Shown one piece after another: positions 1,456 through 23,400 of a stretch of DNA of 36,050 nt (position 1 is the first letter of the stretch; the number at the start of each line of letters is the position of its first letter). The position numbers were made by a program, and so were the translations under genes. The DNA is from Acanthamoeba sp. SK_2022b. Its lineage: Eukaryota > Discosea > Longamoebia > Acanthamoebidae. The notes beneath the pieces are model-generated. The model had not been told where the DNA came from and made no database searches. It saw only the letters and a program-made list of their open reading frames with translations. The stretch covers positions 1 to 36,050 of the forward strand of contig JANDJZ010000485.1 of the NCBI GenBank assembly GCA_027943245.1. The letters are read 5' to 3'.

Positions 1456-1479
1456 TGTCACTAAGTGGATTTAAATCCA
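1456..1479 (+). repeat. Left target duplication and terminal inverted repeat
   Basis: TGTCA duplication (1456-1460) followed by the 19-bp TIR CTAAGTGGATTTAAATCCA. The inner part, TGGATTTAAATCCA, is itself a perfect palindrome. Confidence 0.82.
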
Positions 1480-1764
1480 TACGCCCATACAACCGTGTTG
1501 TAAGCACGATAAACGTAAATATGAACAAACCTGTGTACACGTTTGTGCAGTGCATGCACAAAGGGGGCACGGGAGACCTTTAAGGATACACAGCTCCTGC
1601 ACCAAAAAAAAAAACCGTAGGTCGTTTAGCAGTGGGAGGCAGCAGTTGAGTGCGCAAAAGGTTGGAAATGGTAAGAAAAGGGGCAATACAGTCAAAAAGA
1701 GAGCTTGTTATTAGAGAAAAGAGAGGAGAGCCATGTATTCTGGAATACTATGTCTGTAAAAAGC

Positions 1765-4700
1765 TTACACCTGAGACTGCATCTGCACGTTGTGCACGAA
1801 CTTTTCAGAGCAGTATGACCGTCCAGACTCACCCAAGCACACGCATTCCTGGTTAATGGAGTACTCACACCCAGGAGCAGAGCAGGCCACTACCTTGCCA
1901 GGAGCCTCAACAGTGGAGCGAAGGCAGACAGGGCAGTGGTTGATGTCAGCAGCAAACAGGTCCTGGCTGGAAGGAAGGTTGTGAGGCTTGGGGAGGTTGA
2001 CTGGAGCTAAAGGGAGAGCATCTCCAAGCAAAGGGGGGCTGAGGGGCAGCATGATGGAGGTGGAAGAGGTAGAAGAAGAGGCAGGACACTCTCATAGAGA
2101 AGCGGCAGGTGAGACTGGGCAAAACGCCACTGTCTCTGATCCTTCTTGACAGCAATGGAATTGTGGCCAAGAAGAATGGCAGCTAATGAAGCAGAGTGTG
2201 TGCCAGCAAACACATTGAGAATCCACTGGCCAGGGTGGCTGAAGATCCTGATGAAGCGCTTGAGTGCCTTGAGTGGTTTCTGGCCATAGTTGAGAGGCTT
2301 GTGCGAATTGGACTTCCAGAGCTTTGGAGCAGGGCAGGAGAAGGAAAGTTGGAAGTCATCAGGAGTGCTTGGCAAGAACACCACATTGTTGCTAGATCCA
2401 AAGCGGAGGAGGATGTAGGTCTCAAAGTTGTTGTAGAGCCATTGGTGAGCGCCGCCCTAGCCGCTGGTCAGTGTCATGACGCCAAGGCTAACAGACCAGC
2501 CAGTGTGGTGTTTCTTTATGACCTTGGTGTACTTGGAAGCAAGGCTGTGCTCGCAGAAGATGACTGCAATGAAGTTGGCCTGCTTGTAGGCAATCTTGAT
2601 TGTGTTGATGAGTGTGTTAAAGCTCTTGACTGGGTAGGGCTTGTAGTCCCAGTAGTCAGCATCGGTTATGCCCTTGGAGGGTGTGAGGCCATAGGGAAGG
2701 TTGATAATCACCAGAGCTGTAGTTGGAAAGGGGAGTATGTAAGCAACTAAACAACAATGAGTGTGGAGATGTATTCCAGAATACAATTGACCATCACAAT
2801 AGTATTCTGGAATACAATTGTACCAGCTCATTTCTTGATGGTATTCTGGAATACAAGTGAGTGGTATGTATGGTAATTTTTACAGGGGGCCCCAATGGAG
2901 CACTTGCCAAGAGCAATATTTGCAGCACAGATGGTGGTGTTGTTGGGGAAGTCATGGCGCCACATCTGTGTTGTGTCCTCTGCTCTGACCACCTATGGCG
3001 ATGCCAGAGCTAGGATGTGGGACTTGAAGTCCATGGGGTAGTCCTGCTTGCCTGACTGGTGTGAGAGGCACTTGAGTGACATCTGCAAGGGGGTTTCCAC
3101 AGACAAGCGCCTTGATGATGCGCCAGACATCCACCTGGTTGTGTGTGAGCTGGAAGAGAGGGTCTAGGCTCTGCTTGTTTGCACCAAGAGCAGCAGCAGT
3201 GAGCTCCTTGCCAGACATTGTCCACTGATGGCAACCTTGAAAGTTGCCACTGCCCAGGTCAACCTGACTAGTTGCCTTGAGCGGCTGCTGAAGGTACTGT
3301 GCCCTGGCCATCTGCAGCTGTCTTGAGGTGTGAGCTGGTGTTGCGCCATAACAGCAAGAGAGCAAGGGCACCTTATCCTTGGACGTCATCTCAGAGCGGA
3401 GTGACCCATCAGTGTTTTGGCGAGCAGCAACAAGTGCTACCTCCATCATGTCAGTGTCAGAGTAGTCTGGCCACCAGTAGACAGTTGTGAGGCAGCAGGC
3501 GCAATGCTGCTGTGGATCAGGGACCCCCTCAGCCTTGAGATAAACGTAGGCCTCCCAGTGATGGTTGCCACCTGCTACCCAGCCAGCATACATCTTGCAT
3601 AGCTCATGCAAGATGAGGCTAGCATTCTCCTTGCAGGCACAGTCCAGAGCAGCATTCTTGACATCTGCAGTGGAGGTTAGTATTCTGGAATTGAGAACAG
3701 CTGTGGTGTATTCCAGAATAACAAGCAATGGTGTGTTTGTGCGTACCTTCAGGGCAGATGACAACAACAAAGAATGGCTCAGTTATGGCTACAGGGTTTG
3801 TGGGTATTCCACTTGGCCACTGCTTCCACCTCCTCTGTTTTGTGGAATGGTTGCTGGAAGCATAATTTAATTTGCAAGCTGAGGTACCATTCTGTTCTTG
3901 CTTACTGCAACACTTAGGTGTGGCCTCCTCAGCAGGCACTGAGATGACATGCTCCTCCTCCTCCTCTTCCAATGCTATCAAAAGGACATTGGGCAAGCTC
4001 TTCCCATGCACAGCAGTCCAGCATGCTCTGTGAACTGGGCCAGTTGCACTCTGCACTATTGGCTTCAGAGCAGGGCCACTGGGAGGAGTCAATGGCTGAG
4101 TAAGTGTAGGGCTGGTTAACTGGGATGACACATCAGCCTCACCAATTTCTTCTTCAGGTGCCTCATGTAGCCCTGCCACTTCCATGGTGTCCTCTTCACT
4201 TGAGCTTTCTGAGGAAGGGCTGGGTGATTTGGAAGGAGAGGAAGATGTGATTGGCAGCTTGTCTTTACCCTTGCACCTTCTCTGGCTATCCTTGGTTGTC
4301 TTTCTCTTTTTGACTTGTCTGGTGCTGACATCAAGTTCCTCCTCTTTGTCCTCCACACCACTCTTGGCAGGGCAATGTTTCTCACCTATCAGGGAAGGGG
4401 GTATGGTGGGCAGCTGCTGTGAGGCCTTGCTTAACTTCAAGAGACAGTCAAGCCTGCCTGTAGGATTGAGGGAAAAGCATCAGCAACAGGCGTGTGTAGA
4501 GCATATTCCAGAATACAACTTGACATGTAATGTATTCCAAAAGTGAATTTGGATTACTGCCATCCAGAACCCCAAAAACTTGCACCCATGGACATGACAC
4601 AAACATACAACCTAAGAAAGTTGCTTACCATGAAATGTTTGAACATTCAGTTTCCCTTTGACACTGCCCTTGAGCTCCTTTGGTAGCACATCCCACATTA

Positions 4701-5086
4701 CCTTGTTGTAGAGGTCCACAAAGTGGTCTTTCCCAGCAATGGATGTTACTGTTGCATTCTCTTCCTTATTTGGCATGGTTGTCTCAAAGTCTGAGAGTAT
4801 GCCAAGGCATGCAATTGATTTTGTATCACCAGCTGATTATGCCCACATCAGCTTCACATACTTGGCGTTGGGGTTGTGCCCAACCTGCCTGAAACCAAGC
4901 ACATACACTCCCCATCATTAGTGGATGGAATCAGCAACAAATGTATGCCCCCCCCCACTTTATGCATTTTGTTATTATTGAATCATCTTGGCCAACTTCA
5001 CTAATCAATACTTACCTTGCGTAGTCGCGGTCCTCCTCATACTCAAGGTACCACGGCAGCATTGAAACAACGCTCTTCTTACTCAT
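1765..5086 (-). pseudogene. Beta-class DNA methyltransferase with C-terminal Cys finger, decayed
   Basis: Exons on the minus strand: 5086-5016, 4888-4629, 4457-3747, 3664-2884, then 2716 to about 2000, and a C-terminal part ending at 1765. Start MSKKSVVSMLPWYLEYEEDR; the middle is Ser/Glu-rich (disordered). Catalytic motif IV reads I-I-N-L-P-Y-G (2708-2688), followed by a target-recognition-like stretch, K-P-L-K-A-L-K-R-F-I (motif X-like) and the SAM loop V-F-A-G-T-H-S (near 2213-2193). The order IV-TRD-X-I is the beta class of amino-methyltransferases (N6-adenine or N4-cytosine; PF01555-like). The C-terminus has C-x2-C-x13-C-x4-C-x7-C-x1-C-x8-C, PHD-like. Disruptions: TAA 4837-4839, TAG 2993-2995, TAG 2457-2459, one frameshift in the exon 3664-2884 and another near 2050. 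NLPY for D/NPPY and FAGTH for FxGxG are atypical, so activity is doubtful even if the frame were intact. Confidence 0.72.
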
Positions 5087-5600
5087 GACTGGGATGGTGG
5101 TGATGTGGTTATGGCTGTGGTGGCGCGACTTGACAAAACCCAACCAACAAGCAGAAATTTTGCTTGCGCCATAAACCACGCACATGCCAATGCAGCAACC
5201 ACCTTAAAATTGCTTCATCAGCTCTGCTCTCCAAACGCTGCAATAACCTATGCGTTTTTTTGACCTGACTCTTTTGTACAACTGTACAGCTCTGTCAACT
5301 GATTGTCTTGAATGGACTTTGTGTGCGTGCTCCATGTATCAACTTTTGTGATGTGTTTGTAAAGGTGTGTGTTCCTGTTGGAGTGCGCAAATGTAGCAGG
5401 GTATCTGGACTCGCTTGCATACTGCTTTTCCAACTCTCAGGAGCCTTCACCAGGGTTGCTTGCAAGCACCAGTGCTGTGCTCTGCAATGCTACCAACGGT
5501 AATCTTGGGCAAACAGTAACTTGATGACATGGTTTGTGTATTCCAGAATACACAACCTGTTACTCTTTGTGTGCTCAAGTTCTTCCCTTTACCAAATTCC
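5087..5600. promoter_or_regulatory. Divergent promoter region inside the transposon
   Basis: Lies between the methyltransferase start (5086, minus) and the transposase-like gene (plus). It holds one perfect GTATTCCAGAATAC site at 5538-5551. A Cys-rich plus-strand open frame at 5308-5502 could be a first exon but has no recognisable motif. No TATA box is convincing. Confidence 0.3.
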
Positions 5601-7657
5601 TTTCTATTGCTTAATGCTAACACCAGGCCTGGTGGTGCTCTGTTTGAGACATGGTTTTTCCTGAATGGAAGGAAATCATTGCTTGGACAAGCATGCCATT
5701 GGTTGCAGGAAGGTGCACTTCTGCCCAAACAGCTGTGCCTGCAGATCTGGGAAGTACATGCCCAAAAGTGGTGCTGCTGCCTTTGCCCCTCAACCACCAT
5801 CTCTCTTATGTTAAACCTGTGGCACGCCAGGAGCTTCTGGGTTTGACATACTCTTAAGAGCTGCAAGCAACAAGAACACTGCTCCACTGTTTCATCACAG
5901 CCTCTTACTGCACTCCAGAGGCCTTTCACGCAGAGGCAAAAACTATCTGAGTGACATGGAGCTGAGTCTCTCTGCGCAGACCTTTTCTTGTCTACTCAGA
6001 AGCTGAGTAGCATTGTACTGGGCTGCTCTGTTCTTGTCACTCCTCTCCCTCCCACATGCTTGGTGGATTGACAACTTCAACAAAGGCTTCCAGAGGTCCC
6101 TGGCCACCTACTTCCGCCTGGACTGCACTGCATTTGTATTGGTGCTGCTCCAGTGGGATGACACAGGAGAAGATGACAGTGCTAGGAGCCAGCTTTCCCT
6201 ACCAAACTCCTTTGACCTTGATCATCTTATGCTCTTTATCTCAAGCTTTGATGACTACCAGCAGGCCAACACTCTGCTTACTTCATTAGCATGTGCTTTA
6301 CAGGTCACCAACAACCCTATGAGGCCAAAAGATGCTGTTACCCACGCAGCCATGATGCTACAACGACAACTGCCTTCTGTTGCCCAACCTTATACATCAA
6401 TATCAACCAGGTAACTTGAAGTTCGAAGCACAAGGTGAAGCGCCTGTACCAGTCTCACACTTCATCCCACTGGAGCTGTGGCCCACCAATGTTGGCAGTA
6501 ATGAAGGCTTTGATGAAGCCTTCCAGAAGGTTCACAAGTTCTACAAAAAACACTCACACTCACCCCACTCCTATGGTGTGGCAGACATCAACATCTTTTA
6601 CCATTACTACCTGGTGCGCTCTCTTACTTTTATTATCTAATCTACTCACGAACCACCCAACAACCTGCAGAGAGCTTTCAACAACTTGGGTTCAGGCAAA
6701 GCTTACAAGGATGAACTGTTACTATGTTTGGGATCCTGGCATCCATACAAAGTGGCTAGTGAATTGCTGTGGAAGGTACAGCCAACACAATATGTGTAAT
6801 TCCAGAATACACAAGCCATGCTAAATTGTATTCTGGAATACTACCAAGGTTCTAACCTTGTGCATACTAACATCTTCCAACCTCCAGACTTACCTTCACA
6901 CAATCACCAGTCCAGCCTTTCATGCCATCACACCAACTTCACTCTGTTATGTTAAGCCTCGACTTGCCACACTGACCCACCTCTACACCTTGTTGACTGA
7001 AAGCTATCCAGTTGTAGCCAGTTCCCATCAGCTGGTGGCCAATCAAGCCATGGATGCGCTCACTGCAAAAGTTGCACAACACCTAATTGACTTCTTTGAG
7101 TTCTACCTCCCTCTGGTACCCCAAACCTTTAGACAGGTTTCTGGTTGTGGGCCAGTTAGTACCTTTGACAGTCCATCATCATTACTCAGGTTTGCGATTA
7201 TGGTGTGTGCTTGTGTTTCAACAACTATGACCTGTGGTTTTGCTACTACCATCGTCTGTTCTTGGTCTTTCTTGGCTTGGCACCCAAGGGCCAGTATGCA
7301 CGAAGTTGCCTGCTCTACCTTCACCTCCTCAACCATTGGCAGGAGGAAGGCCTCTCTGTGGTCAGGCACTTGTCCAGCTCCATCTTCTTGTTCAATGAGG
7401 AGGTTGGAGAGGTGACCTTTGCCCAGCTGGCCAGGACAGTACTTGGCAACACAGACCAGTCTTCCTTGGCCAAACTGCAGGAGGCTTACAAGGCCCAGCC
7501 TTACATTGCTGCAGTTTCACCAGTTACCTATGAAGACTCACACAGTGACTTGAAGGACTTCCCACAGGAGCTACTAGCCATGAAAGAGCATCTACAGGTT
7601 GCAGTTGCACAGATCACCTGTGGTTTGTGGCGCCCTTACAAAAAGCTTGGTACCTAG
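5600..7657 (+). pseudogene. Transposase-like gene, spliced, disrupted
   Basis: Best-supported exons: about 6010-6613, 6671-6775, 6888-7115 and 7190-7657 (TAG). Joins are GT-AG and in phase. Possible earlier coding lies at 5650-5860 (frame with T-C-P-K-V-V-L-L-P-L-P), ending at a stop, and TGA 6007-6009 precedes the first good exon; a frameshift falls near 6385. Features: W-W-I-D-N-F-N-K-G at 6061-6087, V-A-D-I-N-I-F-Y-H-Y-Y-L ending at 6613, G-S-W-H-P-Y-K (6730-6750), and F-N-E-E-V-G-E-V-T-F near 7390. Asp, Trp-His and Glu in this order resemble the layout of eukaryotic DDE transposases and DUF6589-type transposon proteins. That is inference from memory of the pattern; the position between TIRs is the main support. 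Confidence 0.5.
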
Positions 7658-8204
7658 CTTACTTCCTTCAGATTGAACCATTGCCTCATCCACCTTGACA
7701 GCTAATTCAGTTCTGGCCCAGCTGGAAAGGGGGCAAAGAGTTTAAAACAGGAAAGTGTTACTCAGCTTGCCCAAGACTTACCTTTTGACAAAGCAATGCC
7801 AACTACTTTCAGACCAGCTTCTTTTGAGCCTGCCCTAAAAACAGTCAACGAGTTCTTAACTTCGTGGCTTCTTTCAGAAGCCTGAAGGTGCACAAAATGT
7901 ATGTGAAATGTATTCCAGAATACTAACGGCCTTTCTCTCTGTTACACTATAGTCTTTGCCCCCCACTGCTGCCACAACTCTGTACACTGAAAAGTGTTGC
8001 CCCTGACAACTTCACCCTTCTCTGCTTTGCCTCTGGTCCTCCTGTTGTTTCCCCCAGCTTTTGGTAGCCTGCTCTCAAACATGTGGTTTTGCATTTGCCC
8101 TCATTTGACACTGCAGATTCTTGCTCCCTACCCTGCCTAAACAAAAGCCCCCCAATTTGAGGGTTTTTTGCATTTCTCATGCACAACACAGTGATTGTGG
8201 TGTT
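7658..8204. other. Transposon right-hand non-coding arm
   Basis: Contains one perfect GTATTCCAGAATAC site (7910-7923). No credible gene was seen; open frames on the minus strand are low in coding character. Confidence 0.5.
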
Positions 8205-8228
8205 TGAATTTAAATCCACTTAGTGTCA
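8205..8228 (-). repeat. Right terminal inverted repeat and target duplication
   Basis: Reverse complement reads CTAAGTGGATTTAAATTCA, 18 of 19 identical to the left end, followed on the plus strand by the TGTCA duplication at 8224-8228. Confidence 0.82.
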
Positions 8229-8264
8229 GGAATCGGCCAAGAGCTGCCCACTCTATTGTTGGAG

Positions 8265-9381
8265 CTAACAAGAGGAAGACGACCGCGAGAAAGAGGCAGG
8301 CAAACGTTGGGCAGCGCGGGCCAAGAGAGCCGAAATGGCGCCACGGTCCTCCACCGGCAAGTGGCCCTGCTTGTAATACTCGTGGAGAAGGCAAAAGGCC
8401 TCTGGCGCCGCCGCCGGGTCGGGGTGCCCCAGCACGTAGGTCAGGCTGCCGTCGTCGCGCGTCACTTGGGGATACACCCACGGCACGCCCTCGATGGTCT
8501 TGCCGCTGTGTCGCGGCACGTGGGGCTCATCTGAAAGCACGGCCAGCCCGCCGGGTCATCGTCCTTTTTGCCACTCTCTGTGCGCATGGTGTCGCCATTG
8601 CACCAGAGGTTGGAACGCGGCCCGACCAGCTGACCCTTGTTGTAGGTCTCATGAACCAAGAAGCCAAACGGTTGGCAGAGCGTCGGCGACTGGGCGTGAT
8701 GCTCGAGCTGTTTGGCGGGGTCGGCCAAGAGGTCAAAGCACGAGCAAACCGTGGTCGTGGCTTGCCCGTGAAGAACGTCGGCCGTGAAGCAAAATGAGCA
8801 CGCCCTTGCCATGGCGTCGGTCATTTTTCCAGTCACCCTCGCACACTATGCCGCCGGTGTATAACCAGGCAGGATAGGACGAGACCCCTTTGCCATGCTG
8901 TCTGCCTTGAGACCATGATCCCACATAGCGAGAGCAGTCGGACACTTGACGTGTGCCCAGGGGCGTGCCCCCGCCAGTCGTGAGGGGAAAGAGCGCCAAG
9001 CGCACCCAGTGCCAGCCCAATGGCGCGCGCCGCAGTGACCAGAGCCTCAGCGGGAAAGCCAGCCTTTTTGCCAGCCTCGAAAGCGGCTTGCGCATTTTCG
9101 TACGCGTTGCCCTCTTCCTCTTCGAGGTTCCCCCCAATGCGCATCAGCTCGTTGCTATCTCGGCTTCTGTTTTCCTCTTCGTTCTCATCTTTGTCCTCAT
9201 CCTGGTCAGCCTCGTCGTCGTCCTTCTCTTCTTCCTTATCTTTGCTGTCCATACACACCCTTTTCTTGCCCTTATCAGCCGCTGTCTTGGGTGGGTCCAC
9301 ATGCATAATCTCGGACGTGTGGGCAGGTGGCGTGCTGGTTGCTTGGGCCTCGGGGGTGGGCGATTCAAAGGGCGGGTCCAT
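8265..9381 (-). pseudogene. MORN-repeat protein gene, probably disrupted
   Basis: Start at 9381: M-D-P-P-F-E-S-P-T-P, then a Lys/Asp/Glu-rich low-complexity stretch and an Ala-rich helix (AYENAQAAFEAGKKAG). A different frame then gives two MORN-type units, Y-V-G-S-W-S-Q-G-R-Q-H-G-K-G-V and G-D-W-K-N-D-R-R-H-G-K-G-V-L. Another frame gives F-G-F-L-V-H-E-T-Y-N-K-G-Q-L-V-G, and the last (8540-8265) G-V-P-W-V-Y-P-Q-V-T-R-D-D-G ending at TAG. An intron with acceptor at about 8530 is possible, but no GT-AG choice I tried joins all segments in phase. MORN units are short membrane- or scaffold-associated repeats. The transposon's right end is only about 40 bp past the stop. Either a pseudogene or a gene with indels in the assembly. 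Confidence 0.5.
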
Positions 9382-10899: not shown

Positions 10900-11136
10900 C
10901 TTAGGCTTCCTTTTGCCCAGCAGCTGATCGCTTAAAGAGGTGGCCTGCTCGTTCCTCTATTCCGAGGAGCTCCTGAGCGGTTCCCTACAATTTAACAACA
11001 AATTCTCACTGTGCCTTCACGCACACTCTTGCTGTGCCTGTTCCACACAATGCTGCACATCTTCAACTTTGTTACAACATAAGCATACGTCAAGGCAGTT
11101 GGAGGAGCGACACCAGAGAAGACGGTCAAGGCTTTC

Positions 11137-11171
11137 GGATACGGCCATACTGCGCAGAAAGCACCGCTTCC
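11137..11171 (+). rRNA. 5S rRNA gene, 5' fragment (interrupted)
   Basis: Starts GGATACGGCCATACTGCGCA and continues through GAAAGCACCGCTTCC, then switches to retrotransposon sequence. Together with 17245-17327 it gives a 118-nt 5S rRNA whose ends (GGATAC/GTATCC) pair. The fragment lacks the internal promoter, which remains with the 3' part. Confidence 0.88.
11157..11171 (+). repeat. 15-bp target site duplication (left copy)
   Basis: GAAAGCACCGCTTCC, repeated exactly at 17230-17244. These are positions 21-35 of the 5S gene and mark staggered cleavage and insertion of the retrotransposon. Confidence 0.9.
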
Positions 11172-11270
11172 GTTTCCGAAAAAAAACTTCCTGCCGCGAA
11201 CAAGGCCACAGCTCCTGCTCCCCCCCTGAACTCGGGTACACCCAACTCAAGAGATGAAGTGCTATTTTGT

Positions 11271-12701
11271 ATGAAGCTTGGAACGGTCAATCCAAGGATA
11301 AAAAACAATGCCAGAAGACCTAGTCTTCCGCCAAAACCGCGCACAGACAGCATCATAATTAATCATACAAAACACTCGCATCTTCTCTCAGAAAGATGGA
11401 CAAGGACACACCCGCACCCTCTACCCATAAGCGAAAGCATGGAGATGAGCAGGAAGGCACCCGCACCTCAAAAACCTCCCGCCCCGAGTCTGAATGTAAC
11501 CCCCCCCAAATCACCAAAAAATTACCTCTCCCCCCAATTAACAAGAAAAAACCCACCCCACCGCCCAGCCCAACGACCAAGCAAGAGACTCATTGCAACC
11601 GAAACTGATGAGGAGAACACCACCCCCAGACCCAGGCCAGGTCACGAAACGAACCCAACCCCAGTGCCCCAACCAACCCAAGATCCTGACTGTGGATGGG
11701 GCGCCAGATACGCACAAGGCTGGGGTCAGGACTCAACCCCCGCTGGGACCAGCACCTACTCATCAATCGAAGCCATCATCAACAAAATTCATAACACCAC
11801 CCCGAGTGAAGACATCGAACAGGAGATTGCCAACGTCCTCAACTCCTATGTAGAAGCCAAGAACAAGTCCATCGAGAGGACAATGAAGGTATCGACAATC
11901 GAACTGGCAGTCCTCAGAGACGCAGTCGCAAAGGCCAGAGGAGGCAGCACCCCCCAAGAAGAGGAAGACCCGACAGTCGCAGTTATAGTCGCTGAGAACG
12001 TCAAGGAGGACTGGAACGCCGTACGCGCCTTCTTCAACGACATCAGGGGACTCGACCTGGAGAACACCATCCTGTTCCCGCAGACGAACAAATGTGCAGC
12101 GATCATAGCCTTTGAATCAGAAGAACACTGCACCCGCGCCCTCAACAAGATCTGCAACTCTGGGAAGGAATGGCACATTGTCTCCTCCATCCCCTCTCTA
12201 AAACAATCTGACTGTGCCCTCAACACCCCCCACACGGCCTACATCTACGCCCCAGACCTCCCGCTAGAAGCCCTTGAGACAATTTCCCCCTCCCCCATCA
12301 AATCGGCTAAAACAACAAACAGGTCCATCACAGTCTCATTCTACAGGGCAGAAGATTCCGCCGCGTTCATTGCACTCCGCTCCATCAAGACTCCCTTGGG
12401 ACTGGCGAACATCTCCAACTCCTACATTGGGAAGACAGAATTCAAGCTGCGTCTGAAAGGCACCCTGAAGAAGTGGCGCTCCTCCAACCTCTGTAACTTC
12501 CTCAAGTCCCAAGGAGTCATCTTCAAGGAGGCGGAAATCGCAAGAAGCCCATTGGATGGACAGAATCTCTCCTACAGCTGGATCAAGTTCAACTCCGCCA
12601 AAGACATGGTCGAAGCCTCAAACAAGACCCTGATCACCATAACAGGAGAGAGACTAATGTGGGAAGAACCCAGAAAACGTGGAATTGGTTGTGGACATTA
12701 A
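11271..12701 (+). CDS. Retrotransposon ORF1, RRM-like nucleic-acid-binding protein
   Basis: First in-frame ATG within the element is 11271, giving 476 residues ending E-P-R-K-R-G-I-G-C-G-H at TAA 12699-12701. The same frame stays open upstream through the 5S fragment, but that part is not element sequence. The N-terminal 170 residues are Pro/Lys/Thr-rich and disordered; then a short coiled coil (SSIEAIINKIHNT...IEQEIANVLNSYVEAKNKSI), followed by segments with the alternating pattern of RRM folds (AVIVAENVKEDWNAVRAFFND; CAAIIAFESEEHCTRALNKI; YSWIKFNSAKDMVEASNKTL). ORF1 proteins of LINEs package the RNA as an RNP. The proline-rich start is open in more than one frame, so the start is uncertain. 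Confidence 0.75.
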   Translation: MKLGTVNPRIKNNARRPSLPPKPRTDSIIINHTKHSHLLSERWTRTHPHPLPISESMEMSRKAPAPQKPPAPSLNVTPPKSPKNYLSPQLTRKNPPHRPAQRPSKRLIATETDEENTTPRPRPGHETNPTPVPQPTQDPDCGWGARYAQGWGQDSTPAGTSTYSSIEAIINKIHNTTPSEDIEQEIANVLNSYVEAKNKSIERTMKVSTIELAVLRDAVAKARGGSTPQEEEDPTVAVIVAENVKEDWNAVRAFFNDIRGLDLENTILFPQTNKCAAIIAFESEEHCTRALNKICNSGKEWHIVSSIPSLKQSDCALNTPHTAYIYAPDLPLEALETISPSPIKSAKTTNRSITVSFYRAEDSAAFIALRSIKTPLGLANISNSYIGKTEFKLRLKGTLKKWRSSNLCNFLKSQGVIFKEAEIARSPLDGQNLSYSWIKFNSAKDMVEASNKTLITITGERLMWEEPRKRGIGCGH

Positions 12702-12738
12702 TAACCCAACACCCACAATCCCACCAAACCCTCTCCTG

Positions 12739-15700
12739 ATGGTTGGCACCTTAAACATATGAGGGGGCCTCCCCCAAAAAATGGACCACATCATACACCA
12801 CTTCAATAAAAAACAACTCGACATACTCATCCTCACAGAAACCAAGACCTTCCATGAAGAATGGACCAGAATCACCCTGTATGGCTTTACTGTCACTCAC
12901 AACGCCCCCTCAATTACCCAAAAAACAAGACAAGGAGGGTTAGCAGCACTATACTGCAACAACATCGCACACCTCATCACAATGGAACAGCTAAACCAAA
13001 CCCACCACCAACACCTTCTCCACATCTCATTCAGGGCCAACAACACCCCTGCCATGCATATAATAGGAGTCTACGCACCTCATGAAAACAGAAACTTCTT
13101 CAACAACACAGTCCTCCCTATCACAAAAAAGTTAACAGAGTCAAACCCAACTATACTAATAGGCGACTTCAACGTGTGCGCACACAAGATTGACAAGAAG
13201 AACCCAAAAGGCTACATCAGCCCACACTTCATAAACCTAATGGAAACGTGCGCGCTAAAAGATGCCTTCTGAGCACTCCACCCAACAAAACAGACCTTCT
13301 CCTGGACCAGAGTTGAAAAGAACGGCAGTATCCAAGCTACAAGGATAGAAACTGCACTAATATCACACCACATAACCCCGATCAACGCCTCATACTCACC
13401 CACGCTGGTTGACACAGACCACCTAGCCTTCACATGCAGCTGGAGAAGAAACAACTACAACCCCTTCACCCCAGTGACTTACCGCAGAGCATTCAAAAGC
13501 AGACTTACCCAAGAAGAGGCTATACTCTTCAATGAACGGATCAGCAACTGTACCTACACTGACATCAGAGACAGAATTGCAACAGCGGCGGCCACCACCA
13601 TCCCAACCCCCCCTCCTAACAAAGCATGTAAACTAAACAAAGAAACTGCAAAACTAGTCAAAAAGTATGGCAAACTCACGCGAAGCATCCACAGACTATT
13701 AGCCACAGGCTCCCTCAAGCCAAAAGAAAGAGCACTTTTCTCAAGTAACGACAACAATGAATGGCTCACCGAAGCAAAAGCCTCACAGAAATCACTCCGT
13801 AGACAGATGCGCAAAGCAATCCGCTCACAAAATAAAATAAAAATAAACACAAACGTCATGAGACAGCGCAGAGATGCCAACCTCACTAACCAACTCCACT
13901 TCAAGAGACTTAAATCACACCTACACCCAAGAACCAACTCCCTACCACTAAACGTGCTAAACGAGCACCATGAACTGGTTACAGACCCGAAGCTAATCAA
14001 AGACGTAACCTGCACCTTCTGGTGTAGCTTGTTCACAAAAGGCCCTGCCCCAACAACCCCTATCCCGAACTGTTACACTAAAGAACGCCCACGCCTTACC
14101 ATTAAAGATAATGAACAGATAACCAGACCCATCACACTGCAAGAACTAAATGACACCCTCGCAAAGATAAAAACAGATTCAGCCCCAGGCCCAGATGAAA
14201 TCAACAACGCAATGCCCAAAGCCCTCAATGCCAGAAACCGAGCAGATCTCCTCTCGTTCCTCAACTCAGCAATGACTGACCCTACACTCCCAGACAACCT
14301 AAACAGCGCAAAAATCTGGACCATCCACAAGAGAAACGACAAAGCAAACCTAAACAACTACCGACCCATAGCACTCTGCCAAACAATATACAAACTCCTA
14401 ACACTAATAATCAATGAACGCCTCTACGAAGCAGTAGAACGGCGCAACATCCTCTCCATAGCCCAAGCAGCCTTTCAAAAAGGGAGGTCAACCCAACTAC
14501 ACATAATCACCCTCCGCAACCTGATCGAGGAAGCCCTCACACTAAACCGCCCACTCTTTGCACTCTTTGTTGACCTGGAAAAAGCATATGACTCCCTGCC
14601 ACACAGAGCCATAACACTCACCCTTCGCTACTATGGCGCCTCCCCAACTCTACAAGAACTAATAAACAAATTGTATGACAATGCAAACACCACAGTGTGC
14701 ACCCGCTACGGTGACACAGCCCCCTTCCCAACGGACAAAGGAGTAAAACAAGGAGACCCTTTATCCCCTCTCCTCTGGAACCTGTTCATCAACCCAGTAG
14801 TAGAACAGCTCCTACACACCCGCTCGGCTCACTCAACATCGCAAGGGGAAAAAATTGGCAACACGGCCTTCGCAGACGACCTCACCATACTCAGCAGCTC
14901 TGGCGCTGACCTAGCCAAATCGCTGGCACTCTTCCAAAACTTCTGCAACTACCACAGACTCCAAATCAGCCCCAGTAAGTCCATCATTGCAACCACCTCA
15001 CTAGAAACCCTGTCCCTAGCAGTAGACACCCCAACAGGACCCCAACTCATACCCAACCTAGACAAGAACAAAAGCGTCAAATACCTAGGCGCCCACATCC
15101 GGTTTGACCAACGCAAACCCGACGAACACTCCCTCACAAAGGAGTTCAAAAAGAAAGCAAACTTCATCTCATCAAAAAGGATGAGCGCAGAAGCCAAAGC
15201 ACACTTCCTAAACACATATGCCTTCCCAACCGTCCTCTACAACACCCCGTCTCGTCCCCTCACCAAAAAAGCAGCAAACAATATAGACTGCGCGGCACGC
15301 AGAGTTATAATAAACGAACTGCACATCCGCAGCTGGTATGACAAAAACATCATGTACGGCCCAGACGGGACGGGCCTCTCGCTTACTGAATTGGGCACAG
15401 CCCAACGATGGGCTGCCCTATCCACCCTAACCTCCATTTTCAACGGACCGGACTCACTAGCGCAGACCACAACAGCAAACAACCTAGCGCTCTACCAAGA
15501 CAAATCACCAGACTTCCCCTTCCACGGCAAACCAACCTTGCGCCGTAACCTCCCCACCATAGCCGCCTTTATAGCAGCAGCTAAAGAATGCGAGGTCCAA
15601 GTAATCTTCCCACACTTAGCGCACCCAAACAACACCCACACACAACCAACCCAACCCCCACCAATCCCACCCACGCCCTACACGCTAGACGTCTTCACCG

Positions 15701-16902
15701 ATGGGTCTTTGAAAAATAGAGCAGCGGGTAGTGGTGTGGTCTTTCACTCCCACCCAAAGCCAATCATACTAACCCACAGAACCCCTAGGGAACAATCAAA
15801 TAATAATGCCGAGCTATACAGTATAGAAATCGCCCTGAAACACACGCCACGCGGCACCCCAGAAATCAGGATCTTTACGGACAGCCAGTACGCCATAAAG
15901 ACGGTACAAAACTGCCTAAAGGACTCCCCAGACATACACCACCTCACCCCAAATAGAGAGACCATCCTCAACATACGCAACCTAGCTGGCAAACACAACA
16001 AAATCACCCTCCACCACATCTACAGCCACGTCACCAAGAAGCTCCGCGCTGATCCCAACAAATGGCAACCAAAGATCGAGGCGCAAAAAACAAACCTCCC
16101 CCTACACTACCCCACCGCCTGCAAACTTAACAACCTAGCTGATGAGGCGGCAAGAAAAGGCGCAGACCTCCCGCCACCCCCCTCGGCCTACGCCCAAGAA
16201 AGGGTGATCGTCCAAGACAACTTCTCCTCCTCCCCAATCCCCAGACGGATCCTCCTACACAAATGGAAGGACCAATGGGACAGACCCCCCCCAGGAACCC
16301 CCAAGCGAAAAGCCCTAGCCAGCCACCCTGACACGGCCCTATACGGTTTCTTGCTTAGAGCCACTAAAAATCTCCTCCCCCTTCGAGCCAACCTTCACCA
16401 AACCTCCTCTAACCCAGTGCACGCAACCCCCACCTGCATCTGGTGTGAACACAACAACCAGGGACACAAACTGGAAGACCTGGACCATGTCCTAGCCTCC
16501 TGCCCAGCACACGAAACTGCACGACGTGAAGCGCAAACGTCTCTAAACACCATCGCGAAAAAACTGGACTCTATCCCCCTTATCCCCACCGCCTCAGCTA
16601 CAGACTGGCTGGGCATACAACGAACTCCAAAAGGACACTCTGACAGCCACTACAAGACCTTCCGCGCCATCCAGGCCACACTCCTCGCCACAAGCCACCG
16701 CATCTGGATTGATCGGTGCCTCTACCTGAATGCCTTGGGCCTCACATGCTCTGCGCAGCGCAAGACAGCCCCTCCCACCCCAGCAACAGCTGGGGTCGGA
16801 AAGGCTAGCGCATCGGCAGGTGCAGGGACCCACAACGCCGTCCAGGTCCACCGCCGACCGAACCCAGCCCGACCAACCGATGAGGTGACACCAGATGACT
16901 GA
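12739..16902 (+). pseudogene. Retrotransposon ORF2: APE endonuclease-RT-RNase H, two in-frame TGA
   Basis: 1387 codons from ATG 12739, interrupted by TGA at 12760-12762 and 13270-13272; from 13273 to 16902 the frame is open. APE domain: T-L-N-I-*-G, I-L-T-E-T-K-T, V-Y-A-P-H-E-N, L-I-G-D-F-N-V, F-S-W-T-R, D-T-D-H. Reverse transcriptase: A-A-F-Q-K-G-R-S-T, F-V-D-L-E-K-A-Y-D-S (catalytic Asp near residue 612), G-V-K-Q-G-D-P-L-S-P, A-F-A-D-D (near 710), K-Y-L-G-A-H. RNase H: D-V-F-T-D-G-S (Asp near 988), N-N-A-E-L-Y, I-F-T-D-S-Q-Y, H-H-I-Y-S-H, N-L-A-D-E-A-A, so D-E-D-H-D are all present. C-terminus: W-C-E-H... H-V-L-A-S-C, a CCHC-like knuckle. Both stops fit CGA(Arg)-to-TGA transitions. Frame begins within or just after the ORF1 end. 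Confidence 0.92.
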
Positions 16903-20444: not shown

Positions 20445-23400
20445 ATGAGCATCTTCGAAGGCGATAACCCACTGGAGGGCTCCGCCATCCTGCTCCTCCT
20501 GCTTCAGCTCATCATAGTGGTGGTGCTGAGCCGCATCCTCACCAAAATCCTTCGCTATGTCAAACGTGTGTTCTCCCTCACTCCCGCATACATATTACTT
20601 TTTTAATAAGTATTGTGTACAAGATCCAAGCTCGTTTTTCTACCTTCAGTATGATTTGAATAATTATTTATTGAATAATTATTTATAATTTCAATTTTAA
20701 TTAAAATTCCCAAATGGAAATTCTAATATGTTTTGTGTCTCGTGTAGAGCCTCCCGTGATAGCAGAAATTGTGGGGGGCATCATACTGGGGCCGTCAGTC
20801 ATGGGCTACGTGCCCGGTTTCACGGACAACATCTTTCCCGAGCACTCGATGGAGGTCTTCTACACGTTCGCCGAGGTGGGCCTGATCTTCTTCATGTTCC
20901 TCATCGGCATGGAGGTAGACCCGCAGCTGTTCAAGCGCAAGCTCGGGCCGTCGCTGATCATCAGCCTCACGGCCATGGGCTTCACCTTCATGCTCAGCCT
21001 CGGCGCGTCAGCCTACATCTACTACAACGTGCCCAGCGGCGCCTCCTATCTCGAGGCCATCCTCTTCACCGGCGTCGCCACCGCCATCACCGCCTTCCCC
21101 GTCCTCGCCCGCATCCTCGCCGACCAGAACCTCATGCAGAGCAAGGTCGGCGTCACCGCCCTGTCCGTCGCCGCCATCGACGACGTCTCGTACGACGTCC
21201 GCCCACGTGTGTCCTCATGTCGTGTGTGTCGCGTGTCCTCGTGTGTGACGTGTGCTGATCCTGGGGTGGGTTGATGACCATCAGGGGCTGGATTGCGTTG
21301 GCGTTGGTGGTGTCGATCGCCAAGTCGTCGGGCAGCCTGACGGCCCTCTACACGCTGCTCGCGCTGTTGGGCTACGTGCTGCTGATGCTCATCGTCGTGC
21401 GGCCCATCACCGCCCTGCTCGTGCGCACGTCGCACCGCAAGAAGATGCAGCACGAGGCCCTGGTCCTGGTGCTCATGCTGCTCTTCGCCTCGGCCTGGAC
21501 CACCGAGGCCATCGGCATCCACGCCATCTTTGGCGGCTTCGTCATGGGCATCGTCGTGCCCCGCGAGAACCAGTTCCACATGAAGGTCACCAAGGCCATC
21601 GAGGTACTCCCACTAGACCCGGCCACTCGCAGCGACACCAAAACAGTGGGCGTGACGTTGGTGGTTGTGTGGTGGGCGTGCGGCAGGACCTGGTGACTAT
21701 CGTGTTCCTGCCGCTGTACTTCACCTACTCGGGGCTGCGCACGAAGCTGGAGGACCTCAACACGCCCGAGTCGGGGGTCATGGTCATCCTCATCCTCGCC
21801 GCCTCCAACATCGGCAAGATCGGCGGCGCCACCTTTGCCGCGCGCCTCGTCGGCCACACCTGCCGGTAACGCCCCCCCCCGTGACTGTCGACACTGTCGA
21901 CATTCGGGACACGCGCAACTTACCAAATTACGATCTGCGTTGTGTGTCGCGCAGGGAGTCGCTCACGGTGGGCGTGCTGCTGAACACCAAGGGACTGGTG
22001 GAGCTGATCGTGCTCAACATCGGCCTCGACGTGGGCATCCTCACCGAGGAGATGTTCGCCTCGTTCATCGTGATGGCCCTCTTCAACACCTTCATCACCA
22101 CCCCGCTCTGCTACCTCCTGTGGACCCGCTGGGCCGTCCGCACCGACCCCAACCTGCGACCCAAGTGCGCCTCTCTTGTCGGCAACTGTCGACAGAAATG
22201 CCACTAACGCGAAGCATGCACGTGTGTGCCCACAAATGTCACAGGGACAAGTTCTCGGTGGTTATGTGCGTGGACGAGCCGGCGTCGGCCCTCGCGATGG
22301 TCGAGGTGGCGGCCGCGGTCATCCACGGACAGAAGAAGCGGAAGAAGCTGCGCCGACGCCCCACGCTCAACGCCCTCCAGCTCATGGAGGTCTCCGACGC
22401 GCCCTCCTCCTATTTCTTTGCGGTAAGACGTCGCATCTTCTCCTTGCACGCAAACGCAAACGCACACGCGCACGCGACTGATGCTGAGATGGTTGGGTGT
22501 GCACAGTTGAGACAGAAGAAGTCGAATGCGCTGGTGCTGTCCAAGAAGCACGCCACGCTGCTGGGACTCAACCTGCGCTCGACCATGCGCGTGTCGGCCC
22601 ACGTCACGCACGACCTCACCCAGATGCTCAACTCCTGGGTACTCCCCCCCCCGCTTCAACATCGTCAACTTGTGGGATTACAAGCGCTGGTTACTCATCC
22701 ACGTGACTTGACCTCTGATCCACCAGCTGTACGAGCTGGTGCTGCTGTGCTGGCATCCGCCCCACGCTGGCGCCGAACTGACTCAGGGCCGGGGCATCCT
22801 GCACCACCTCCTCCAGCACGCGCGAGCCCCCATCGGCGCGCTCGTCTACCCGGTAGCGCCCTCGTCTACCCCCCCCCCCGTTTATTCATTCCTGTCATTC
22901 TTCTTTCGGTCAATCCGATAGCCTCGCCGCTTGCTGCTGATTGGCTGAGAATGGACGATCGCAGGGCAACTTCAATGCGATGAACAGTGTCGACAACGTG
23001 CTGTTCGTGTACCGGTTCGAGCGGTGCGAGCGGGAGGCGTTCCAGCTGGTCCTCTCGCTGCTCAACAACCCGCAGACCAAGGTCACCGTCGTCATGCCCT
23101 CGCGGGAGTCATGGGAGCGCGAGCTCATGCGGCAGTACCACGACAACGAGGATGACGACTACGGCTACGGTGACGACGACGACTACGCCGACGACAAGGA
23201 CGGAGCCTCCGAGATGGACGAGCTGATGGACCTCACCACCAGCGACGACGATGACGACCACCTCGCCCACAAGCGCTCCGCTGTTGTCGACAAAAACGAC
23301 GACGAGGCGGAGGAGGATGCCGCGCAGACCGCGGACGAAGCGACGAGCGAGCACGAGGGAGAGAAGAAGAAGAAGAAGGACAAGAAGGACAAGTGCTGCC

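What the first reader, a model, noticed from the sequence alone, without database searches (positions are those of the whole stretch)
1461..8223. DNA transposon carrying a beta-class DNA methyltransferase with a Cys-rich finger
The sequence shows 19-bp TIRs, a 5-bp TSD, a transposase-like gene, and a divergent gene with NLPY catalytic and FAG SAM-binding motifs in the order of bacterial N6A/N4C methyltransferases, fused to a PHD-like finger. A mobile element that brings its own amino-methyltransferase could mark its own DNA, or its excision/insertion sites. Few eukaryotic elements are known to do this; I do not know of this one as described.
Basis: partly seen in the sequence, partly recalled or inferred. 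Interest (0 to 1): 0.88.

Follow-up and report, generated by a model that had tools for sequence, protein, structure and literature searches.

The report
Jumping gene with self-addressed DNA methyltransferase
This is a eukaryotic jumping gene that carries a predicted bacterial-type DNA-methylating enzyme, and copies of one short palindrome are spaced evenly through its non-coding parts, likely as the address by which the enzyme would mark the element's own DNA and help it escape host silencing.

Summary
Window 1461-8223 is a multicopy TIR element: 16-bp perfect ends, and 5-bp target duplications in all 3 copies with two true ends and both flanks readable. The opposite-strand gene encodes a beta-class amino-methyltransferase (PF01555, E 3.7e-10 in a sister copy) with a PHD-like finger. 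The window copy of the gene is broken; the sister on contig C654 splices (predicted) to an unbroken 1041-aa frame. Diverged remnants of both genes lie in the same arrangement on C942.

New here: a 14-bp palindrome, GTATTC-YR-GAATAC. It occurs 37 times in the 45-Mb genome, 35 of them inside copies of this element. C654 has 13 sites (up to 2 mismatches), none in a methyltransferase exon, in seven clusters about 1.1 kb apart. A distant relative (C432) keeps the core. The element is strongly CpG-depleted (observed/expected 0.185; flanks about 1), as expected if the host methylates it.

Best reading: the protein likely docks on these palindromes and methylates the element to resist silencing. Docking, base, activity and outcome are inferred. 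ParB-methyltransferase accessory proteins are published for algal transposons, so this is a new variant of a known kind. A ParB-like domain is only weakly supported here; the transposase superfamily is unidentified.

The parts
1461..8223 (.). whole element (6763 bp)
   Evidence: TIRs, TSD, other copies
1456..1460 (.). target site duplication TGTCA, left
8224..8228 (.). target site duplication TGTCA, right
1461..1479 (+). left terminal inverted repeat (contains GGATTTAAATCC)
8205..8223 (-). right terminal inverted repeat
1765..5086 (-). methyltransferase gene, 6 predicted exons (5016-5086, 4629-4888, 3888-4457, 3747-3834, 2884-3664, 1765-2716); pseudogene in this copy
   Evidence: mapped from the C654 gene model
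3405..3834 (-). possible ParB-like region (GGNHRW motif at 3555-3572, GGNHHW in this copy); 140 nt of it missing here
   Evidence: motif and hhalign only, weak
2124..2717 (-). beta-class amino-methyltransferase domain; NLPYG 2688-2702, FAG motif 2187-2213
   Evidence: PF01555, phrog_67
1798..1935 (-). PHD-like Cys-rich finger (two ligands lost in this copy)
5111..7657 (+). second gene, presumed transposase; exons tentative; its candidate start codon lies 24 bp from that of the methyltransferase gene, head to head
   Evidence: ORFs, copies, relatives
1735..1748 (.). palindrome, 3' of the methyltransferase gene
2771..2784 (.). palindrome, intron 5
2802..2815 (.). palindrome, intron 5
2841..2854 (.). 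palindrome, intron 5
3680..3693 (.). palindrome (2 mismatches), intron 4
3708..3721 (.). palindrome (1 mismatch), intron 4
4503..4516 (.). palindrome (1 mismatch), intron 2
5538..5551 (.). palindrome, presumed intron of the second gene
6797..6810 (.). palindrome (2 mismatches), presumed intron of the second gene
6828..6841 (.). palindrome, presumed intron of the second gene
7910..7923 (.). palindrome, 3' of the second gene

Best explanation
This is a multicopy DNA transposon with matched terminal repeats and 5-bp target duplications whose opposite-strand second gene encodes a predicted amino-methyltransferase with a PHD-like finger, and the protein likely docks on the element's own evenly spaced 14-bp palindromes and would methylate the element, probably on adenine, to resist host CpG-methylation silencing. 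Shown: ends, TSDs, copies, gene arrangement, methyltransferase family, the palindromes with their confinement and spacing, and CpG depletion. Inferred: splicing, a ParB-like fold, palindrome binding by this protein rather than another, adenine as substrate (DLPYG; recalled rule that D/N-x-P-Y means N6-adenine and S-P-P-Y N4-cytosine), what the finger reads, and that the mark counters silencing. Proposed cycle: a new copy transcribes both head-to-head genes; the protein returns to the palindromes, one cluster per about 1.1 kb, in introns and 3' regions; it writes methyl marks across the element; copies that lose the protein or its expression are CpG-methylated by the host and decay.
For: Palindrome GTATTCYRGAATAC: 35 of 37 genome sites lie inside copies of this element; backwards control 1 site (places set). 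In the window 11 of 11 sites (up to 2 mismatches) lie inside it, chance expectation 0.13. C654 copy: 13 sites; 8 of 8 in the methyltransferase gene span lie in introns (p about 1e-6 if placed at random); seven clusters 1120 +/- 122 bp apart, matched by 3 of 20,000 uniform and 15 of 5,000 non-coding placements, found post hoc and with tentative second-gene exons. The diverged relative C432 has 2 exact cores TATTCNNGAATA, one 17 nt past the stop of its methyltransferase frame; 0 in 200 shuffles. P0005 reads 'VFQNT', as the palindrome would, at the place of a palindrome-bearing intron (by eye). Methyltransferase; unbroken spliced 1041-aa frame in C654; metagenome relatives P0001 and P0003 keep methyltransferase and finger pattern, P0002 most of it. 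C942 has relatives of both genes in the same relative orientation. CpG o/e 0.185 (window element), 0.47 (C654), 1.07 and 0.89 in flanks; of 223 listed window dinucleotides that are CG in another copy, 150 are TG or CA. In print: VANC21 binds a short motif in non-coding parts of its own transposon and removes methylation (PMC5735166, passages); in A. castellanii 5mC is confined to transposons and 6mA marks expressed genes (PMC12695648, passages).
Against: Nothing shows that this protein binds the palindromes; the presumed transposase or a host factor could. ParB_N (PF02195) finds no part of the element although it rings at six other places in the genome. hhalign gives only P 0.043, probability 1.2%, and windows of the protein without the GGNHRW motif (441-662, 481-702) score as high as those with it (17.7 and 17.5 against 17.2-17.6). 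AlphaFold models are unusable for the methyltransferase part and the ParB-like exon (mean pLDDT 42 and 38). Some palindromes may stem from duplicated pairs: 2771-2813 and 6799-6841 are 81% complementary over 43 nt, the sites themselves making up much of that. Most copies are decayed, so any protection fails in the end. Selection on the protein could not be shown: few differences lie outside CpG context and results are mixed. C942 has no intact palindrome core in the 1.9 kb held.
Confidence: 0.4

Rival explanations
1. The palindromes are binding sites for the element's transposase or for an element-borne regulator, and the methyltransferase acts elsewhere, for example on the ends, to time transposition as Dam methylation does for some bacterial elements.
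For: The sites are near-symmetric and element-specific and occur in both gene halves; the ends contain a different palindrome, GGATTTAAATCC.
Against: The sites are not concentrated near the ends as usual for transposase sites (recalled); they are spread evenly. The 1001-bp non-autonomous copy C241 has TSDs but no core site, so they seem dispensable for mobilisation.
Confidence: 0.2
2. The palindromes work on RNA or as stress promoters: hairpins in introns and 3' UTRs, or heat-shock-element-like TTCNNGAA sites.
For: They lie in introns and just 3' of stop codons; neighbouring sites can pair (I9); the centre TTCNNGAA resembles a heat-shock element (recalled).
Against: None in the 24-bp gap between the two candidate start codons; some lie outside introns; the shared outer bases exceed a heat-shock unit; even spacing over both genes is not expected.
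Confidence: 0.13
3. The methyltransferase represses its own element (copy-number control) or alters host genes rather than resisting silencing.
For: The finger suggests a link to chromatin; bdelloid N4CMT, a bacterial amino-methyltransferase fused to a chromodomain, silences transposons (PMC8885841, passages).
Against: An address found almost only inside the element argues against host targets; in A. castellanii 6mA is reported on expressed genes.
Confidence: 0.16
4. The methyltransferase is a captured passenger without a role for the element.
For: Transposons capture genes; selection could not be shown.
Against: The methyltransferase-finger arrangement is kept in P0001, P0003 and C432, and relatives of both genes co-occur on C942.
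Confidence: 0.11

Closest known systems
ParB-like / amino-methyltransferase accessory proteins of algal transposons (Ectocarpus Sola1-1_Ec32; green and red algal elements), PMC12477816
   Same: Opposite-strand accessory gene of about the same length (1104 aa there, 1041 predicted here), amino-methyltransferase domain; the authors too propose binding and modification of their own transposon (passages).
   Different: PHD-like finger fused here; transposase unclassified; ParB-like domain only weakly supported here. The Ectocarpus main text contains no word beginning 'palindrom' or 'PHD'. Its sources on green and red algae (Iyer 2011, Petroll 2025) were not read.
VANC anti-silencing proteins of Arabidopsis VANDAL transposons, PMC5735166
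   Same: Short motif mainly in non-coding parts of the protein's own transposon and rare in other elements; anti-silencing shown there, proposed here (passages).
   Different: Different protein without methyltransferase (recalled); the VANC21 motif YAGTATTAY is non-palindromic and in dense same-orientation arrays, here single to triple palindromes about 1.1 kb apart.
Bdelloid rotifer N4CMT, PMC8885841
   Same: Bacterial-type PF01555 methyltransferase fused to a eukaryotic chromatin-reading domain (passages).
   Different: Host gene with a chromodomain that silences transposons; here transposon-borne with a PHD-like finger, predicted N6-adenine.
Bacterial and phage beta-class methyltransferases (RsrI, phrog_67)
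   Same: Sequence matches: RsrI over the SAM-binding part, phrog_67 over both motifs.
   Different: Spliced eukaryotic gene with long N-terminal region and finger, inside a TIR element.
TET/JBP-carrying DNA transposons of fungi, PMC12730594
   Same: DNA transposons carrying a DNA-modifying enzyme (passages).
   Different: Dioxygenase acting on methylcytosine, not an amino-methyltransferase.

Membership tests
TIR DNA transposon | terminal inverted repeats in several genomic copies | tested here: met
   17 TIR matches against 0 in the control
TIR DNA transposon | constant-length target site duplication | tested here: met
   5 bp in 3 of 3 copies with two true ends and both flanks; 3 further loose end pairs without TSD set aside as chance
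TIR DNA transposon | DDE-type transposase | tested here: inconclusive
   no Pfam family up to E 10; D/D/E residues by eye only; DUF6589 search without positive control
beta-class amino-methyltransferase | PF01555 above gathering cut-off | tested here: met
   40.6 bits against 26.7, over profile positions 151-217 of 221
beta-class amino-methyltransferase | catalytic motif N-terminal to SAM motif | tested here: met
   DLPYG aa 729-733, FAG aa 893-895; phrog_67 spans both
beta-class amino-methyltransferase | methylates DNA | not testable with these tools
   -
PHD finger | Pfam PHD-type model above cut-off | tested here: inconclusive
   PHD_NSD (cut-off 23.9): cut-out P0001 finger 24.4 bits, whole P0001 20.2, P0003 16.8, C432 finger 17.9, C654 finger 12.4; YNG2 PHD E 0.0013 for the C654 finger
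ParB-like transposon methyltransferases of algae | amino-methyltransferase gene on the strand opposite the transposase | tested here: met
   gene orientations, though the transposase is presumed
ParB-like transposon methyltransferases of algae | ParB-like domain | tested here: inconclusive
   no PF02195 match; hhalign against 7 ParB proteins P 0.043, none of 150 shuffles above (highest 19.6, about equal), GGNHR aligned with DGFHR, but motif-free windows score as high
ParB-like transposon methyltransferases of algae | sequence homology to the algal proteins | not tested
VANC-type anti-silencing | family-specific motif in non-coding parts of the own element | tested here: met
   35 of 37 genome sites; 8 of 8 in the methyltransferase gene span in predicted introns
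VANC-type anti-silencing | protein binds the motif and lowers 5mC | not testable with these tools
   -
VANC-type anti-silencing | VANC protein homology | not tested
   no VANC sequence was compared

The most novel reading that the evidence does not exclude
A eukaryotic transposon that carries both a bacterial-type DNA methyltransferase and its own address code: a regular lattice of palindromes, a parS-like system, on which a ParB-like/methyltransferase/PHD protein loads and spreads an adenine mark across the element, imitating the host's active-gene 6mA and holding off 5mC silencing.
Probability: 0.27. Interest if true: 0.9.

Novelty: new variant of a known kind. Interest (0 to 1): 0.73.

Why it matters
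If true, this would be a compact natural system in which a mobile element writes its own epigenetic identity with a bacterial methyltransferase directed by a short DNA address. It would suggest how transposon-borne amino-methyltransferases, reported in algae, find their own DNA. It also makes the open question of 6mA against 5mC in protists testable on one 7.3-kb element.

Tried and rejected
Rejected: membership in a Pfam transposase family (no match); no class assigned. RAG/Transib was considered because of 5-bp TSDs and a PHD partner (recalled), but no call supports it. H3K4me3 reading by the finger, suggested by the weak YNG2 match, is not claimed because the tryptophan before the histidine of the ING cage (recalled) is absent. 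Segmental duplication as the source of all palindromes: flanks of most sites differ, but one pair of site pairs shares 43 nt. Recent-copy conservation of palindromes (2.7% difference, other intron 4.4%, exon 6.9%) is too weak and CpG-confounded to use. dN/dS was inconclusive. Phage and viral-contig searches gave only short methyltransferase-core matches (4 phage records) or none. A protein search with the ParB-like exon scored 7,996 candidates (capped) and found none; that with the second gene scored 7,998 (capped) and found one. Foldseek and VIA on the poor methyltransferase model gave weak methyltransferase and FYVE-type finger matches, not used as evidence. Copies dropped from counts: C232 (73% over 135 bp) and the end-only places C440, C514, C376, C438. 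Not examined: PF01555 match C68, second-gene relatives C509 and C278.

Not in print, as far as searched: the titles and abstract starts listed by searches (several lists capped; open-licence library only) showed no amoebozoan transposon with a ParB-like/amino-methyltransferase and no such palindrome array.

Full report
What is there. Window 1461-8223 is bounded by inverted ends (16 bp identical, 18 of 19) and flanked by TGTCA on both sides. The window is contig C647 of a 44.9-Mb, 1129-contig genome; its organism was not identified here. Eleven loci including the window share sequence beyond the ends (C647, C654, two on C356, C962, C387, C549, C733, C489, C241, C430; a 135-bp match on C232 is left out), and the 16-bp end pattern (up to 1 mismatch) occurs 17 times against 0 for the reversed control. 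The three copies with two true ends and both flanks readable have perfect 5-bp duplications: C647 (6763 bp), C962 (5157 bp) and C241 (1001 bp). C654 (7303 bp) has both ends but its contig stops at the right end. Three loose end pairs in the same scan had no duplication and are set aside as chance.

The methyltransferase gene. In C654 the minus-strand gene splices, by prediction, from six exons to 1041 aa without a stop. Aa 725-924 match phage DNA methyltransferases through both motifs (phrog_67, E 5.9e-11). PF01555 scores 40.6 bits against a cut-off of 26.7, over the SAM-binding part, and RsrI methylase is the best solved relative over the same part (E 6.2e-6). The C-terminal finger has the spacing of a C4HC3 PHD finger by eye. 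Pfam support is below cut-off for C654 itself (12.4 of 23.9 bits) and just above it for the cut-out finger of P0001 only (24.4). Four metagenome relatives (40-61% identity) were found; P0001 and P0003 keep methyltransferase and finger, P0002 most of the finger, and in P0004 the finger does not align. Upstream, the motif GGNHRW recalls the ParB/sulfiredoxin signature (recalled) and is kept in C432. Against seven ParB-type proteins hhalign aligns it in register and none of 150 column shuffles scores higher, but the P-value is 0.043, the probability 1.2%, and windows of the protein lacking the motif score as high. Pfam ParB_N does not see it although it finds six other places in this genome. The ParB-like reading is therefore weak.

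The window copy is dead. Relative to C654, exons 4 and 5 lack 140 and 266 nt, neither a multiple of three, and the methyltransferase exon lacks 4 nt, with stops. Key residues changed too.

The second gene. It runs the other way from a candidate start codon 24 bp from that of the methyltransferase gene. No Pfam family matches up to E 10. One metagenome relative, P0005, is 58% identical over 35% of the query. That it is the transposase is inferred from its place in the element.

Co-travel. Contig C942 holds a methyltransferase relative (34% over 149 aa, E 6.5e-13, with stops) and a relative of the second gene (54% over 39 aa, E 9.1e-6) within 1.6 kb, in the same relative order and orientation. 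The two matches are about 1.1 kb apart there and about 4.5 kb in the window, so this is probably an internally deleted remnant. The genes therefore appear to have stayed together through substantial divergence.

The palindromes. GTATTCYRGAATAC occurs 37 times in the genome; 35 sites are in copies of this element and 2 (both GTATTCTAGAATAC, on C144 and C489) are not. The reversed control pattern occurs once. In the window all 11 sites (up to 2 mismatches) are inside the element, with 0.13 expected. In C654 there are 13: three in intron 2, two in intron 4, three in intron 5, one 3' of the stop codon, and four in the other gene's presumed introns and 3' part; introns 1 and 3 have none. All 8 within the methyltransferase gene span fall in introns, which make up 670 of 3796 bp. 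The seven clusters are 985-1342 bp apart (mean 1120, sd 122); 3 of 20,000 uniform and 15 of 5,000 non-coding placements are as regular. I noticed this after the fact. Flanks differ between most sites, though the site pairs at 2771-2813 and 6799-6841 resemble each other over 43 nt. In C432, whose methyltransferase is about 30% identical over the longest aligned stretch (46% over a short one), two exact cores TATTCNNGAATA remain, one 17 nt past the methyltransferase stop (shuffles: 0 of 200). C942 has none intact in the 1.9 kb held.

Host response. CpG observed/expected is 0.185 in the window element, 0.47 in C654, and 1.07 and 0.89 in the flanks; at 223 listed dinucleotides that are CG in another copy the window has TG or CA at 150, while for GpC 439 of 518 listed are unchanged. 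This is the footprint of 5mC deamination (established knowledge), and fits the report that in A. castellanii 5mC is confined to transposons and 6mA marks expressed genes (PMC12695648, passages), if the host is an Acanthamoeba.

Mechanism. The pattern of a family-specific motif kept in introns, intergenic and terminal non-coding DNA of its own element is what was described for VANC21 (PMC5735166, passages). An enzyme that writes amino-methyl marks and a dispersed palindrome suitable for a dimeric binder in the same element suggest self-addressed marking. Binding, base, spreading and benefit remain untested, and the rivals are given separately.

Known and new. A brown-algal Sola1 transposon carries an opposite-strand 1104-aa ParB-like/amino-methyltransferase protein, and the authors cite similar ones in green and red algae as possible self-modifying accessory proteins (PMC12477816, passages). 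The kind is therefore known. New here, within the searches made, are the fusion to a PHD-like finger, an unclassified transposase partner and, above all, the evenly spaced element-specific palindromes.

Noticed in passing
11034-16902: A LINE-type retrotransposon: an ORF of 555 aa, an endonuclease domain (PF03372) and a 1142-aa ORF with reverse transcriptase and RNase H, with strong strand skew.
   Followed up: partly
1461-8223 versus 1-1460 and 8224-9380: Sharp CpG depletion inside the element (0.185 against 1.07 and 0.89).
   Followed up: yes
L040, L043, L044, L045 (C549, C430, C440, C514), right ends: The four copies have right flanks beginning AGAAG; for C549 and C430 the match extends further, suggesting they sit in a larger repeat.
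   Followed up: no
C7, C315, C320 (three places), C329 of the own genome: ParB_N (PF02195) matches above cut-off, some in long open frames; not part of this element, nature unknown.
   Followed up: no
C68:13801-13896 of the own genome: A PF01555 match above cut-off (31.4 bits) in a 419-aa open frame, outside this element; nature unknown.
   Followed up: no
C432 (L061): A diverged methyltransferase relative with a PHD-like finger, GGNHRW and variant palindromes TTATTCTAGAATAA and ATATTCTGGAATAA; no matching TIR within the 3.2 kb held.
   Followed up: partly
20714-21271: Sodium/hydrogen exchanger exon (PF00999).
   Followed up: no
about 932-1002: Long GT microsatellite near the element's left end.
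   Followed up: no
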